Assembly (NCBI GenBank): GCA_024639125.1
Contig: JAHEJA010000012.1
Coordinates: 1 to 64,000, forward strand
Origin: Paracoccaceae bacterium
Lineage (GTDB): Bacteria; Pseudomonadota; Alphaproteobacteria; Rhodobacterales; Rhodobacteraceae
Direction: 5' to 3'
Length of the DNA stretch: 64,000 nucleotides
The notes below the pieces were generated by a model. It was not told the origin of the DNA. It searched no databases and was given only the letters and a program-made list of their open reading frames with translations. Every line of letters begins with the position of its first letter. Positions within the stretch are counted from its first letter, which is position 1. The translations under genes were made by a program, and so were the position numbers. Positions 41,666 through 46,269 of the stretch are shown here, piece by piece.

Positions 41666-43166
41666 AACGCCGCCCCAATCGCTCAAAGAGCCAAAATAAG
41701 CCAAGGCTGATCCCCACCAAAAGCACCGCCGCCGCCGCCGCTTGGGACATTCGATACGCCCCCATTAGCTGATACAGTTTGAGCGGCAACGTGGCATGCT
41801 CAGCCGTTCCAAACAGGGCAATCACCCCTAAATCGCCCATAGCAAGTGCCGCAACCAAGCCCGCAGCAAATCCCAATGTGCGCGCCATGCGTGGCACCAA
41901 CACCCAGCGCACCCAAGCCCAAGGCGACAAACCCAAAGACTGTGCCAAACGTCCATAATGCGCGCGTGTATCCTCGGCTGCAGGACGCAGAATGCGCAAC
42001 ACAAAAGGCAAAGCCATAAGAGCATTCACACATAGCGTAACAACCAGCGCATATTCAAACGGGTTGCCAATCTTGCGCAGCATTAGAAACACCCCCGTTC
42101 CCAACACCAAAGGCGATATGGCGATCCCCAAGCTACCGATCACTTCGCCCCATTTATGCATCAAACACAACGCAATCCCAAGGCAAAGAACCGTAGACGC
42201 CAAAGCCATCAAAATAGATCGACCAGCCGCGATCCAGACATCGCCGCCCAATGACGAAATACCCCATAGGCCATAGGCCATCACCATCCCAAGCGGCACC
42301 AACAAAAACGCGGCAGCCCACATGATATGAAAGACATCCAAAATAATCCGCCAAACCGGATCCCCAATGCGCAACACAGGACGATCCAGTCCTTGGCCCA
42401 AATCGGTGCGCACCCCAATCAAGGTCAGTGCAACCGCTGCTGATCCGGCAAGACCCAATTGGATCATTCCCAAACTTGCCGCCTTGCCCAAGTCAAAATC
42501 AAATCGAAACGCTTGGTAAATTGCCAATTCCAAAGTCGTCGCCTTGGGGCCACCGCCTAATGTTAAAGCCACCGCGAAACTTGACAGGCAAATAACAAAA
42601 ATCACCGCAAAAGCGGCGGGAATAACACGCAGCAACATGGGCGCTTCGATGATGCGAAAAAGCGCAAGCCCCGACAACCCCAAACTTTGGGCTAGGCGCA
42701 AGCGCTCTGTCGGAATTGCGCCCCAAGCCGCCAAAACCATACGTGTTGCCAACGGTAAATTGAAAAAGACATGGGCCAATAAAATACCCTGAAGCCCATA
42801 TATAGAGACTGTTTTTACTCCGAAATATCCCAGAACCCCATTCACCAGCCCGTTCTGACCAAAGACAGAGATCAACCCAAGCACAGCAACAATCACGGGC
42901 AAAATAAAAGGTGCGCCCATCAACATGACAACAACGTCACGCCCCCAAAAGTGCCGATAAAATAACGCACGTGCAACGGGGATTGCCAAACCAACCGAGA
43001 TAACCGCCGATAGGCTGGCTTGATACACTGTAAATCGGATCGACGCCCAATCGTCGGCCGTTGGACGCACCAATCCATCAGAGGCGGACCAAACCGCCCC
43101 CAATGGCAATAGGATCGCAGCCAGCACGGCTGCGCCCATGATTATTGCGACAACGCGCGACGCCAC
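41658..43166 (-). CDS. thiP: Thiamine ABC transporter permease ThiP
   Basis: 502 residues, a fused double permease with about 12 membrane segments and two EAA-type loops (RLAQSLGLSGLALFRIIEAPML and RLAQSLGLSPWAWVRWVLVPRM). This two-in-one layout is typical of ThiP. The likely start is GTG at 43166, overlapping thiB by 25 bases; an ATG at 43139, directly after the thiB stop, is an alternative and would shorten the first segment. Neither has a strong ribosome site. It works with ThiB and ThiQ. Confidence 0.93.
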   Translation of the reverse strand: MASRVVAIIMGAAVLAAILLPLGAVWSASDGLVRPTADDWASIRFTVYQASLSAVISVGLAIPVARALFYRHFWGRDVVVMLMGAPFILPVIVAVLGLISVFGQNGLVNGVLGYFGVKTVSIYGLQGILLAHVFFNLPLATRMVLAAWGAIPTERLRLAQSLGLSGLALFRIIEAPMLLRVIPAAFAVIFVICLSSFAVALTLGGGPKATTLELAIYQAFRFDFDLGKAASLGMIQLGLAGSAAVALTLIGVRTDLGQGLDRPVLRIGDPVWRIILDVFHIMWAAAFLLVPLGMVMAYGLWGISSLGGDVWIAAGRSILMALASTVLCLGIALCLMHKWGEVIGSLGIAISPLVLGTGVFLMLRKIGNPFEYALVVTLCVNALMALPFVLRILRPAAEDTRAHYGRLAQSLGLSPWAWVRWVLVPRMARTLGFAAGLVAALAMGDLGVIALFGTAEHATLPLKLYQLMGAYRMSQAAAAAVLLVGISLGLFWLFERLGRRYA

Positions 43167-44122
43167 TCTGCAATCGCCTCATCCCGAAGCTGGGCCGCCG
43201 TTACATCGTCATAAAAAATCGCCTTGTCCGGCATTGGAAGATCAGCAAAAACCGCAGGCCACGCGCTTGCCGGTTGCGCCGCTGGATAAGACCAGTTTGT
43301 TTCTGGGATCAACGATTGAAACGCATCTGACATCACAAATGACATGAATTGATCCGCCAACTCTGGCTGATCTGTCCCTGCCACTTTGGCGACCAATTCA
43401 AAGAACGCATAATGCCCTTCGTCAAAAATCGCCGCCTTTTTGGTCAAATCACTTTCGGCTGCGATGTGATAAGCGGGCGAAGTATTGAAGGACAACACAA
43501 CATCCGCTTCACCAGACGTGAACAGCCCATAGGCTTCGGACCAACCTTTGGTGACGGTCAAAATCTTGGGGGCCAACCGCGCCCAATAGGCTTCGGCTTG
43601 ATCGCCATAAACCGCCTTGACCCACAAAACCAACGCCAAGCCAGAAATCGAACTGCGCGGGTCTTGGATCACAATCTTTGATCCCTCTGGCAAATTGACC
43701 AGATCTTCGAACCCACTGGGGGCAGTCGCCAAACGCGTTTCGTCATAAACAAACGACACATAAGCCCAATCAAAGGGCAAAAACACATCGTCCGCCCAGG
43801 CAATTGGCAAATCCAAATCGGCATTATTCTGACCATGCGCCGCAAACAATCCCGTTTCACGCGCCTTTTTGGTGACATCCGTGTTTAACCCGATCACGAT
43901 ATCCGCATTGGTGCTGCTGCCCTCTAACATAAGACGTGGCAACACATCCCCTGCGGAAAATTCAAGATCACAGGCACAGGTCGCTTCGAACGCCTGTTCA
44001 ATCGCAGGACCAGGCCCCCATTCCGACGTAAAATAATCAGGGGCATAGATAGATAACACAGGGGTTTCAGCCACAACTGAAGTTGCTGCTAATAAGCCCG
44101 CTGCAAGTGTAAGATGTTTCAT
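43142..44122 (-). CDS. thiB: Thiamine-binding periplasmic protein ThiB
   Basis: 326 residues. A signal peptide MKHLTLAAGLLAATSVVA with cleavage before ETPVLSIYAPD is followed by a type II binding-protein fold related to iron and thiamine binders (YFTSEWGPGPAIEQAFEATC; PRSSISGLALVLWVKAVYGD; FMSFVMSDAFQSLIPETNW). It binds thiamine, TMP or TPP in the periplasm. First gene of the thiBPQ operon. Its GGAGAG ribosome site can be sequestered by the hairpin of the upstream TPP riboswitch. Confidence 0.94.
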   Translation of the reverse strand: MKHLTLAAGLLAATSVVAETPVLSIYAPDYFTSEWGPGPAIEQAFEATCACDLEFSAGDVLPRLMLEGSSTNADIVIGLNTDVTKKARETGLFAAHGQNNADLDLPIAWADDVFLPFDWAYVSFVYDETRLATAPSGFEDLVNLPEGSKIVIQDPRSSISGLALVLWVKAVYGDQAEAYWARLAPKILTVTKGWSEAYGLFTSGEADVVLSFNTSPAYHIAAESDLTKKAAIFDEGHYAFFELVAKVAGTDQPELADQFMSFVMSDAFQSLIPETNWSYPAAQPASAWPAVFADLPMPDKAIFYDDVTAAQLRDEAIAEWRRALSQ

Positions 44123-44126
44123 TCAA

Positions 44127-44258
44127 CTCTCCTTTTGCAAGCGGAGAGTAAGTATCAGGAATTGTTCCAGACCTTCCCTCCGCCGGTTCTAACCGGTTCA
44201 GGTTCAACGGGTCCGCAACTGCGTCTCAGCCATTTTTGGTGGCACCCCGAGGTAGGGC
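44127..44258 (-). ncRNA. TPP (THI-box) riboswitch with Shine-Dalgarno-sequestering stem
   Basis: Read on the minus strand, the leader holds the THI-box landmarks in order: CTCGGGGTGCC, GGCTGAGA, GGACCCGTTGAACCTGA and CCGGTTAGAACCGGCGGAGGGA (aptamer about 44172-44258). Between aptamer and ATG, ACTCTCC and GGAGAGT (44143-44149 and 44126-44132) can pair over 7 bp, and the second arm is the thiB ribosome site. This suggests translational repression when TPP is bound; no T-run follows, so transcription termination is less likely. Confidence 0.95.
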
Positions 44259-44260
44259 TG

Positions 44261-44288
44261 AATTTAGAGGAATTTTGGAAATGATCAA
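44261..44288 (-). promoter_or_regulatory. Candidate promoter of thiBPQ
   Basis: On the minus strand, TTGATC (44283-44288), a 16-base spacer and TAAATT (44261-44266) precede the riboswitch so that transcription would start near 44254. A plus-strand promoter for the retron region (TTGGAA 44275-44280, 17 bases, TAATTT 44298-44303) would overlap it. Confidence 0.45.
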
Positions 44289-44565
44289 TAGCTTGCATAA
44301 TTTAATAATGAGACCAAGGCACACCTCGAAAACTGGACTTAAGTTTACAAAATATGACTTTATATGTACCAATCACTTGTGTTCAAATTCACAATCACTT
44401 AACTTCAATTTGGCATCAAGTGTTGGGATTAACTAAGTGTTGTGTACCTGCGACACCTGCGACAAGGTTATTTTCAAGCACCTACGCGATCTACATTATG
44501 CTAATAATATGTCTGACTTTAAACAAACTATGGAAAAGCGAAATTCCAACATTTGATGCTAAAAA
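44289..44565 (+). ncRNA. Candidate retron msr-msd non-coding RNA
   Basis: About 280 AT-rich bases upstream of the retron-type RT hold no credible gene, but they have paired structure. AATCACTT occurs twice (44371-44378, 44393-44400), and its partner AAGTGTT occurs twice (44418-44424, 44435-44441), so they can nest into a long two-tier hairpin. The best single stem is CACAATCACTTA with TAAGTGTTGTG (44390-44401 / 44434-44444), 11 bp with one bulge, a plausible msd. Longer-range pairs are GCATAAT/ATTATGC (44295-44301 / 44495-44501) and GGAATTTTG/CGAAATTCC (44269-44277 / 44539-44547), candidate a1/a2 arms. TAGC at 44289-44292 could hold the branching G. The exact boundaries are inference. Confidence 0.4.
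44447..44464 (+). repeat. Perfect 9-base tandem repeat in the retron leader
   Basis: CCTGCGACA is repeated twice head to tail with no mismatch, just after the candidate msd stem. Such a direct repeat could arise by slippage or be part of the msd structure. Confidence 0.75.
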
Positions 44566-46269
44566 ATGACCTTAAAATCGTTTAAAACAATAAAAGAACT
44601 CTCGACAGCACTTAACCGAAAGCATCGCGATGAATTTTTGTTTATTGCCTATGGGACTAATCCTAGCAACCGATACAAGTTGTTTAAAATTCCTAAGAAA
44701 AGTAGCGGACTTCTTAGCATATGCGCACCTAACAAAGCCCTATTGAACTTACAGCGTGAGATCCTAGCGTTATTGCAAAACGACTACTATCCTAAAGCCG
44801 TTGTACATGGATTTGTTAACGGCAAGGATCGTAGCATAAAAAGCAACGCTGAAAGTCATATCTGCAAAAAATGGGTCTTGAATATCGATCTAAAGGATTA
44901 CTTCGAAACGATTCATTTTGGGCGAATTAAGGGTCGACTTATCAGCTCGCCTTACAACTACCCTCCTGATATTGCGCAGTTCATCGCTCATATCTCTTGT
45001 TTCGAAAAAATCACAGACACGGAAGGAAAAAAACACAAAACAAGCGTGTTGATGCAAGGAAGTGCACTATCTCCCATCCTCGCAAATATAGTTTCAGACA
45101 AATTAGATGCCGAACTCTTTCGCTTTTGTAATCAACTCGGCTGCACATACACTAGGTATGCAGACGACATAACAATATCGTCTGATCGTTCAAAATTTCC
45201 CGCAAAAATCGGGACGTCCAAAAATAATGAAGATCTAAAGAGTTTCAATTTATCAGAAACTTTCCAAGAAATATTCGAAAATAATGGCTTTAATATTAAT
45301 CACACGAAAACTCGTTTGCGCGGTAGGTCATTCCAACAAGAAGTCACTGGCTTGGTTGTAAACGAAAAGCTAAACGTAAAACGAAAATTTGTGCGGAACG
45401 TCAGAGCAATGCTGCATGATTGGGAGGCAAATGGATTAGATGCTGCGACATCTCGCCATTTTGACGAAAAACGACCAACTCGGGGTCGATTACCCCAACA
45501 GGAAGTCCGAAAATTCGAATGGGTCGTGCATGGCAAGATTGAACACATTCGAAACATTAAAGGGCCAACTGATCAAGTATTCAGAAGACTAGCGGCAAAA
45601 TATAACGACGTATGCTCAAATGGCTCAAAGTTCAAAATTCCACTAGTAGAAGATCGCGAAGTTCTGGAAGCTACGGTTTGGTATTTAGAAAATGATGATG
45701 ATGCAGGTTCTGTTGGAACTTGCTTCGCAATTGAAAATAATCTCTTTGTGACTTGCGCCCACTGCATCGGTGACAATTTGCGTATTTTTTCACCTCTAAA
45801 CCGGAATTTTGCACTGAAAGCCGAATTGGTCAAAAAAGATGATCACAACGATTTGGCTCTAATAAAAATAACAGATCCGTTTCCAGCATACGCTCCTACA
45901 TGCTGTTTAAAAATAGCCGATAAAAACGACACTGCCAAATTCGTTGTCGACTCTTACGTCCTAGTAGCCGGATATCCGCAAAATTCGGACTCGAATTCAT
46001 TAACAATTAGGGAAAGCAAGTTCACCGGGCATTCACGTAAAAGTTTTGATAGAAAACCTGTCAATAACGATAATGTAATAGAACTTGTCTCTGGTACTTG
46101 GGCTGGTATGAGCGGCGGTCCTATTTTGTTTGGGGGAAAAGTCGTGGGAATCATTGTAAGGGGACCTAACGATGACGATCCGACCATCCCTTGTTTAGCA
46201 ACAAAGTCCGAACTGCTAGAAGAATTACTCATTCGCCACCCCCCAAATACCGACGCAATACCGACGTAA
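44566..46269 (+). CDS. Retron-type reverse transcriptase fused to a trypsin-like serine protease
   Basis: 567 residues in two parts. Residues 1-340 are a reverse transcriptase with the retron-specific NAxxH motif as NAESH (94-98), the catalytic YADD (198-201) in YTRYADDITISS, and the VTG motif (260-262) in QEVTGLVVNEKLNV. QGSALSP replaces the more usual QGxPTSP. Residues 365-560 are a chymotrypsin-fold protease with His399 (TCAHC), Asp429 (HNDLALIKI) and Ser516 (GMSGGP), so the triad is intact. No signal peptide or membrane segment is seen. The gene is visibly AT-rich with many AAA, ATA and AAT codons, unlike its neighbours, which indicates transfer. There is no clear ribosome site. Retron defence with the protease as effector is inference. 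Confidence 0.9.
   Translation: MTLKSFKTIKELSTALNRKHRDEFLFIAYGTNPSNRYKLFKIPKKSSGLLSICAPNKALLNLQREILALLQNDYYPKAVVHGFVNGKDRSIKSNAESHICKKWVLNIDLKDYFETIHFGRIKGRLISSPYNYPPDIAQFIAHISCFEKITDTEGKKHKTSVLMQGSALSPILANIVSDKLDAELFRFCNQLGCTYTRYADDITISSDRSKFPAKIGTSKNNEDLKSFNLSETFQEIFENNGFNINHTKTRLRGRSFQQEVTGLVVNEKLNVKRKFVRNVRAMLHDWEANGLDAATSRHFDEKRPTRGRLPQQEVRKFEWVVHGKIEHIRNIKGPTDQVFRRLAAKYNDVCSNGSKFKIPLVEDREVLEATVWYLENDDDAGSVGTCFAIENNLFVTCAHCIGDNLRIFSPLNRNFALKAELVKKDDHNDLALIKITDPFPAYAPTCCLKIADKNDTAKFVVDSYVLVAGYPQNSDSNSLTIRESKFTGHSRKSFDRKPVNNDNVIELVSGTWAGMSGGPILFGGKVVGIIVRGPNDDDPTIPCLATKSELLEELLIRHPPNTDAIPT

What the first reader, a model, noticed from the sequence alone, without database searches (positions are those of the whole stretch)
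44289..44565. Candidate msr-msd RNA upstream of the RT-protease gene
The region has doubled AATCACTT and doubled AAGTGTT elements that nest into a long hairpin (best stem 44390-44401 with 44434-44444), plus outer pairs GCATAAT/ATTATGC and GGAATTTTG/CGAAATTCC as possible a1/a2 arms, and TAGC at 44289-44292 for a branching G. No reading frame here is convincing. The architecture is what a retron RT needs directly 5' of its gene.
Basis: partly seen in the sequence, partly recalled or inferred. Interest (0 to 1): 0.7.

Follow-up and report, generated by a model that had tools for sequence, protein, structure and literature searches.

The report
Type XI retron with its RNA

Summary
The gene (44566-46269, +) is a type XI retron protein (PADLOC RT-Protease_XI, E 9e-148), with NAxxH, YADD, VTG and an intact protease triad. 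The RNA is 44409-44563. A 22-pair a1/a2 stem (44409-44430 with 44542-44563) ends 2 nt before the start codon; the longest stem in 200 shuffles was 14. In nine sequences (this and eight relatives) the stem shows compensatory changes at 7 pairs, with a covariation score above all shuffles. Next comes a near-invariant stem-loop (44437-44456). The same plan recurs at RT-protease loci across phyla, and the linker motif follows the RT tree. The cassette is a low-GC insertion between thiB and aroC. Two textbook features are absent here: a priming G in an AGC context and a stable msd hairpin. msDNA, defence and protease target are untested. It is a new member of a known kind, with an open question about how type XI primes DNA synthesis.

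The parts
44409..44430 (+). a1: 5' arm of the terminal inverted repeat TTTGGCATCAAGTGTTGGGATT
   Evidence: 22 uninterrupted pairs with 44542-44563; longest in 200 shuffles 14; pair probabilities 0.78-1.0; compensatory changes at 7 pairs in 9 sequences
44431..44436 (+). single-stranded linker AACTAA between a1 and the first hairpin (clade motif AACYWA)
   Evidence: clade-specific motif that follows the RT tree
44437..44456 (+). SL1, first msr stem-loop GTGTTGTGTACCTGCGACAC (7 bp, 6-nt loop); G44437 is the invariant G of the AG at the linker end, one of two candidate priming Gs (the other is G44427)
   Evidence: all 7 pairs invariant in 9 sequences; a hairpin of the same shape at the same place at most RT-protease loci; TGCGR motif in 28 of 40 loci against a 6% background
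44464..44474 (+). weak second msr hairpin AAG-GTTAT-TTT
   Evidence: conserved block, helix 3; weak in this sequence
44476..44541 (+). putative msd template (variable 3' half), inferred from its position
   Evidence: diverged between relatives while the msr half stays about 90% identical; no stable DNA hairpin here
44542..44563 (+). a2: 3' arm of the terminal inverted repeat AATTCCAACATTTGATGCTAAA, 2 nt before the RT start codon
44566..46269 (+). retron RT fused to a trypsin-like protease, 567 aa
   Evidence: PADLOC RT-Protease_XI E 9.3e-148; Pfam RVT_1 and Trypsin_2; best solved relative retron Ec67/Eco2
44845..44859 (+). region X motif NAESH (NAxxH)
   Evidence: N94 and H98 invariant in an alignment of 29
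45157..45168 (+). RT active site YADD
   Evidence: invariant in an alignment of 29
45343..45351 (+). region Y VTG triplet
   Evidence: T261 invariant, V260 and G262 at least 90%
45715..46152 (+). trypsin-like protease domain; triad H399 (45760-45762), D429 (45850-45852), S516 (46111-46113)
   Evidence: Pfam PF13365 E 8e-16; triad invariant in 29 proteins; predicted fold matches DegP/DegS/Rv3671c proteases

Best explanation
44409-46269 is a complete type XI (RT-protease) retron. Its RNA, 44409-44563, is the msr-msd: the a1/a2 stem closes the molecule, a conserved 5' half (linker, SL1, second hairpin) is bound by the RT domain, and a variable 3' half of about 65 nt is the template. Inferred steps: the RT uses a 2'-OH near the a1/SL1 junction to start copying just 5' of a2, giving a short msDNA that stays bound; in that complex the fused protease is held inactive, as the fused Toprim is in Eco2; a phage product that cuts or alters the msDNA frees the protease, which cleaves host or phage proteins and stops the infection. 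Shown here: RNA structure, conservation, co-evolution with the RT, intact RT and protease motifs, insertion as a unit. Not shown: transcription, msDNA, defence, trigger, substrate. The confidence given is for the retron assignment; the protease-release mechanism alone I put at about 0.6.
For: Family and motifs. Terminal stem. Covariation: (98.1% of cells paired, 7 pairs and 11 cells with compensatory change, 0/500 shuffles reach the covariation score; slid controls 32-51% paired). Recurrence: a significant terminal stem at the expected place in 30 of 42 RT-protease loci against 12 of 190 control positions, p about 1e-18. SL1 at most of these loci. RNA linker classes follow the RT tree, 7 changes against 28.3 shuffled. 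In 395 genomes of the order the RNA model hits only two, the two with the close RT-protease genes; it also hits the right spot upstream of a Parcubacteria RT-protease gene at E 0.002. Positive control: the same stem finder, run on RT-Toprim (Eco2-type) loci, puts G directly after a1 (..NA|GAT, mostly GATTT) as published for Eco2 (PMC6868368). Insertion: relatives have thiB-riboswitch-aroC without the cassette, which is 40% GC in a 51% GC window. Mechanism by analogy with Eco2, an RT-effector fusion held inactive with msDNA and linked to phage DenB (PMC12405507).
Against: No AGC-type priming site at the end of a1 and no G shared by all type XI linkers. The putative msd DNA folds no better than shuffles here (188 of 200 as good). 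Covariation rests on a1/a2; SL1 is invariant within the clade, so it is neither for nor against by covariation there. No expression data. The protease-release mechanism is inference.
Confidence: 0.88

Rival explanations
1. The RNA is bound by the RT-protease as a structural or regulatory RNA but is not the template of a canonical 2'-5' branched msDNA; priming is protein-, 3'-end- or A-dependent, as in some defence-associated RTs.
For: No AGC and no universal G in the linker. In clade A the G in GATTAAC (44427) is A in most relatives, and Pseudomonas L020/L151 have A where the near-identical L054 has its linker G. The msd hairpin is weak.
Against: RT motifs are retron-type including NAxxH and VTG, nearest structures are retrons, and one RT-protease clade has a G immediately after a1 (TC|GCATAC). 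Retron-Sen1 also lacks an apparent priming G (PMC6868368).
Confidence: 0.15
2. One reading: a1/a2 from GCATAAT/ATTATGC or GGAATTTTG/CGAAATTCC, hairpin 44390-44401/44434-44444, branch G in TAGC at 44289.
For: The strings are present; the hairpin is -11.4 kcal/mol alone.
Against: Chance-level inverted 7-mers, pair probability under 0.01, no conservation upstream of 44409, and overlap with the real arm and SL1.
Confidence: 0.02
3. Decayed or non-functional retron: the RNA is a relic.
For: GC-poor insertion in an otherwise housekeeping region; relatives include broken copies (L017 cut short by IS3, L026 split, L028 apparently frameshifted).
Against: Here the gene is intact with all motifs, and the long a1/a2 stem is kept by compensation.
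Confidence: 0.05

Closest known systems
Type XI retron (RT-Protease_XI in PADLOC-DB; classification of Mestre et al. 2020, known here only by citation)
   Same: RT-trypsin fusion in one gene; profile E 9e-148 over 535 residues
   Different: No description of its ncRNA was found in the papers available here; this report supplies a defined RNA with covariation
Retron-Eco2 (Ec67), type I-C RT-Toprim fusion
   Same: Closest solved structure by sequence (E 9e-42) and fold (E 4e-26); single fusion gene, ncRNA of similar length directly 5' of the gene, a1/a2 stem, hairpin shortly after the linker
   Different: Effector is a protease instead of Toprim; Eco2 and its relatives have the priming G right after a1 (CAGA in Eco2..NA|GAT in relatives), which is absent here
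Type XII retron (RT-TIR fusion)
   Same: Next-best profile for the RT part (E 9e-104)
   Different: TIR effector instead of protease
Nuclease-protease gene pairs of antiviral systems (PMC12799240)
   Same: Trypsin-like protease used in antiviral defence
   Different: There the protease activates a paired nuclease; here it is fused to a retron RT and the adjacent genes are thiB and aroC

Membership tests
Retron (general) | Retron-type RT with YADD, region X NAxxH and region Y VTG | tested here: met
   NAESH 94-98, YADD 198-201, VTG 260-262; N94, H98, YADD and T261 invariant in an alignment of 29
Retron (general) | ncRNA directly 5' of the RT, closed by an inverted repeat a1/a2 of about 8-30 bp | tested here: met
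   22 bp, 44409-44430/44542-44563, with covariation
Retron (general) | msr half with stem-loops, conserved and RT-specific | tested here: met
   SL1 44437-44456; conserved block about 90% identical to the Phaeobacter plasmid copy; linker class follows the RT tree
Retron (general) | Priming G in TAGC/AGC-like context at or just after the inner end of a1 | tested here: not met
   After a1: AACTAAGTG. Candidates G44427 and G44437 are not in AGC; 44427 is A in most close relatives. Not strictly universal among retrons: Retron-Sen1 lacks an apparent one and Eco2 has CAGA (PMC6868368), so this alone does not exclude membership
Retron (general) | msd that folds into a stable hairpin | tested here: not met
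   Window msd DNA -1.2 kcal/mol, 188 of 200 shuffles as stable; the msd boundaries are inferred. A clear hairpin exists in another RT-protease clade, e.g. L053 z -3.7
Retron (general) | Production of branched RNA-DNA msDNA | not testable with these tools
   needs nucleic acid from cells
Type XI retron | RT fused to trypsin-like protease, single gene | tested here: met
   triad H399/D429/S516 invariant
Type I-C retron (Eco2) | C-terminal Toprim effector | tested here: not met
   the C-terminus is a trypsin-like protease by sequence and fold
Anti-phage defence system | protection against phage | not testable with these tools
   no assay available

The most novel reading that the evidence does not exclude
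Type XI retrons do not use the canonical AGC priming guanosine: different clades start DNA synthesis from different nucleotides around the a1/SL1 junction, some possibly from A, and make a short, weakly folded msDNA that controls a fused protease.
Probability: 0.15. Interest if true: 0.7.

Novelty: new member of a known kind. Interest (0 to 1): 0.42.

Why it matters
RT-protease retrons are a catalogued type for which I found no description of the ncRNA or effector action in the papers available. A precisely bounded RNA with covariation, clade by clade, gives the construct needed to test msDNA production, the priming nucleotide and whether msDNA holds a protease in check, and natural G/A variants at candidate priming sites make that test direct.

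Tried and rejected
A genome-contig scan with the single protein found nothing; the alignment query worked. Rfam gave only the neighbouring TPP riboswitch and chance hits. RNAduplex scoring of arms was too permissive (timed out) and was replaced by ungapped stem scoring. DNA patterns of the RNA core in viral contigs found one relative and none for the window's own variant. No + strand promoter consensus was found. A peptide encoded by the region was rejected because frames are not conserved. A stable msd hairpin was looked for and not found here. The 2020 classification paper and the 2024 experimental census were not in the library, so whether they describe a type XI RNA could not be checked.

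Full report
What the gene is. The ORF 44566-46269 (+) encodes 567 aa with an RT domain (Pfam RVT_1, E 5e-18) and a trypsin-like peptidase domain (PF13365, E 8e-16). PADLOC's best profiles are RT-Protease_XI, E 9.3e-148, then RT-TIR_XII and RT-Toprim_I-C. NAESH, YADD and VTG are present. In an alignment of 29 proteins N94, H98, the YADD residues and the triad H399, D429, S516 are invariant. The closest solved chain is the retron Ec67/Eco2 protein by sequence (E 9e-42), and also by fold for an AlphaFold2 model of mean pLDDT 85; the C-terminal part matches DegP/DegS/Rv3671c-type proteases.

All quoted strings exist, but GGAATTTTG starts at 44269, outside the stated interval. Inverted 7-mers are no more frequent than in shuffles (3 against 4.1). 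The proposed main stem has negligible pairing probability in the folded region. The sequence 5' of 44409 is not conserved among relatives.

What is really there. The longest uninterrupted stem in 44269-44565 is 22 pairs, 44409-44430 with 44542-44563; the longest in 200 dinucleotide shuffles was 14. Its 3' arm ends 2 nt before the start codon. In nine sequences (the window and eight relatives, the readable ones 51-64% identical in protein) the corresponding stem is kept despite sequence change: 98.1% of cells paired, seven pairs with changes on both sides, covariation score above all 500 shuffles, and only 32-51% paired when the partner is slid by one to three columns. Inside lies the most conserved DNA of the locus, AACYWAGTGTTGTG-(T)-ACCTGCGACACCTNCG: 50 nt at 90% identity to the Phaeobacter plasmid copy, whereas the gene, compared with the close relative L023, is 61% identical. 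It forms a 7-bp hairpin, 44437-44456. The 3' half, 44476-44541, is variable.

How general it is. The stem finder, applied to 42 RT-protease loci from Alpha-, Beta- and Gammaproteobacteria, Myxococcota, Bacillota, Parcubacteria and viral contigs, among others, finds a significant terminal stem at the expected place in 30, against 12 of 190 control positions (p about 1e-18). A hairpin of the same size follows the linker at most of the 37 loci examined; it was chosen by energy there, so the independent evidence is the shared sequence: TGCGR occurs in that stretch in 28 of 40 loci against 6% in background. Linker motif classes, which I assigned by eye, follow the RT tree: 7 changes against 28.3 in shuffles. 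In 395 genomes of the order, the RNA model hits only the two with close RT-protease genes. The model also finds the right spot at a Parcubacteria RT-protease locus at E 0.002. The RNA and the enzyme therefore evolve as a pair.

Positive control and the priming site. On RT-Toprim loci of the Eco2 type, the same method places a G directly after a1 in the form ..NA|GAT, mostly GATTT. This matches the published Eco2 priming site CAGA (PMC6868368). In RT-protease loci no such single rule holds. One clade has G right after a1 (TC|GCATAC). The window's clade has an invariant G at the first pair of SL1 (44437), while the G in GATTAAC (44427) is A in most relatives. One Pseudomonas pair differs G/A at the only linker G while the a1/a2 stem is kept by compensatory changes. 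The priming nucleotide is therefore unknown, and the canonical AGC is absent. The putative msd DNA of the window folds no better than shuffles, unlike that of another clade.

Where it sits. In relatives thiB, its TPP riboswitch and aroC are neighbours with no retron between. Here the cassette lies between the riboswitch (44158-44259, - strand) and aroC. It is the lowest-GC 2-kb stretch of the window (0.40 against 0.51). This points to acquisition as a unit.

How it most likely works. By analogy with Eco2, where the Toprim effector is fused to the RT, held inactive in an msDNA-containing trimer and linked to the phage nuclease DenB (PMC12405507), the RT part would make and hold a short msDNA that keeps the protease off until a phage product disturbs it. 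I give this mechanism about 0.6; the retron assignment itself 0.88.

Known or new. Type XI is an existing class. The contribution is the exact RNA, its support by covariation and co-evolution, and the finding that two textbook features (AGC priming site, strong msd hairpin) are missing in this clade. Whether a type XI RNA is already modelled could not be checked, because the classification paper and the census were not in the library.

Noticed in passing
44158-44259 (-) and 43142-44122 (-): TPP riboswitch (Rfam RF00059, 70 bits) in front of the divergently transcribed thiB-like gene; relatives have it next to aroC without the retron.
   Followed up: yes
L017 (Phaeobacter inhibens plasmid NZ_CP081276.1, 99405-100949): A close relative with the RNA intact but the protease part cut short by an IS3 element, and a second IS3 copy upstream.
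   Followed up: partly
L026 1-4200 (Paracoccus sp. MKU1): The 3' half of the RNA and the first RT codons lie about 3.9 kb from the rest of the RT gene, with other ORFs between: a retron split by an insertion.
   Followed up: partly
L028 4001-5370 (Epibacterium ulvae): RNA well conserved, but the straight in-frame translation from the start of the matched RT-protease stretch meets many stops, suggesting a frameshift.
   Followed up: no
L054 3757-3890 versus L020 2275-2409 and L151: Near-identical Pseudomonas RT-protease retrons that differ G to A at the only linker G (CACGATTTAAC versus CACAATTTAAC), with compensatory changes in a1/a2: a natural test of the priming nucleotide.
   Followed up: partly
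44447-44464: Tandem direct repeat CCTGCGACA CCTGCGACA inside the RNA, spanning the SL1 loop/3' arm and the bases after it; relatives have CCTGCGACA CCTGCGAGA.
   Followed up: no
L103 (IMG/VR contig 2880567409_000004): A close relative of this retron is carried on a contig classed as viral, so the cassette may travel with prophages.
   Followed up: no
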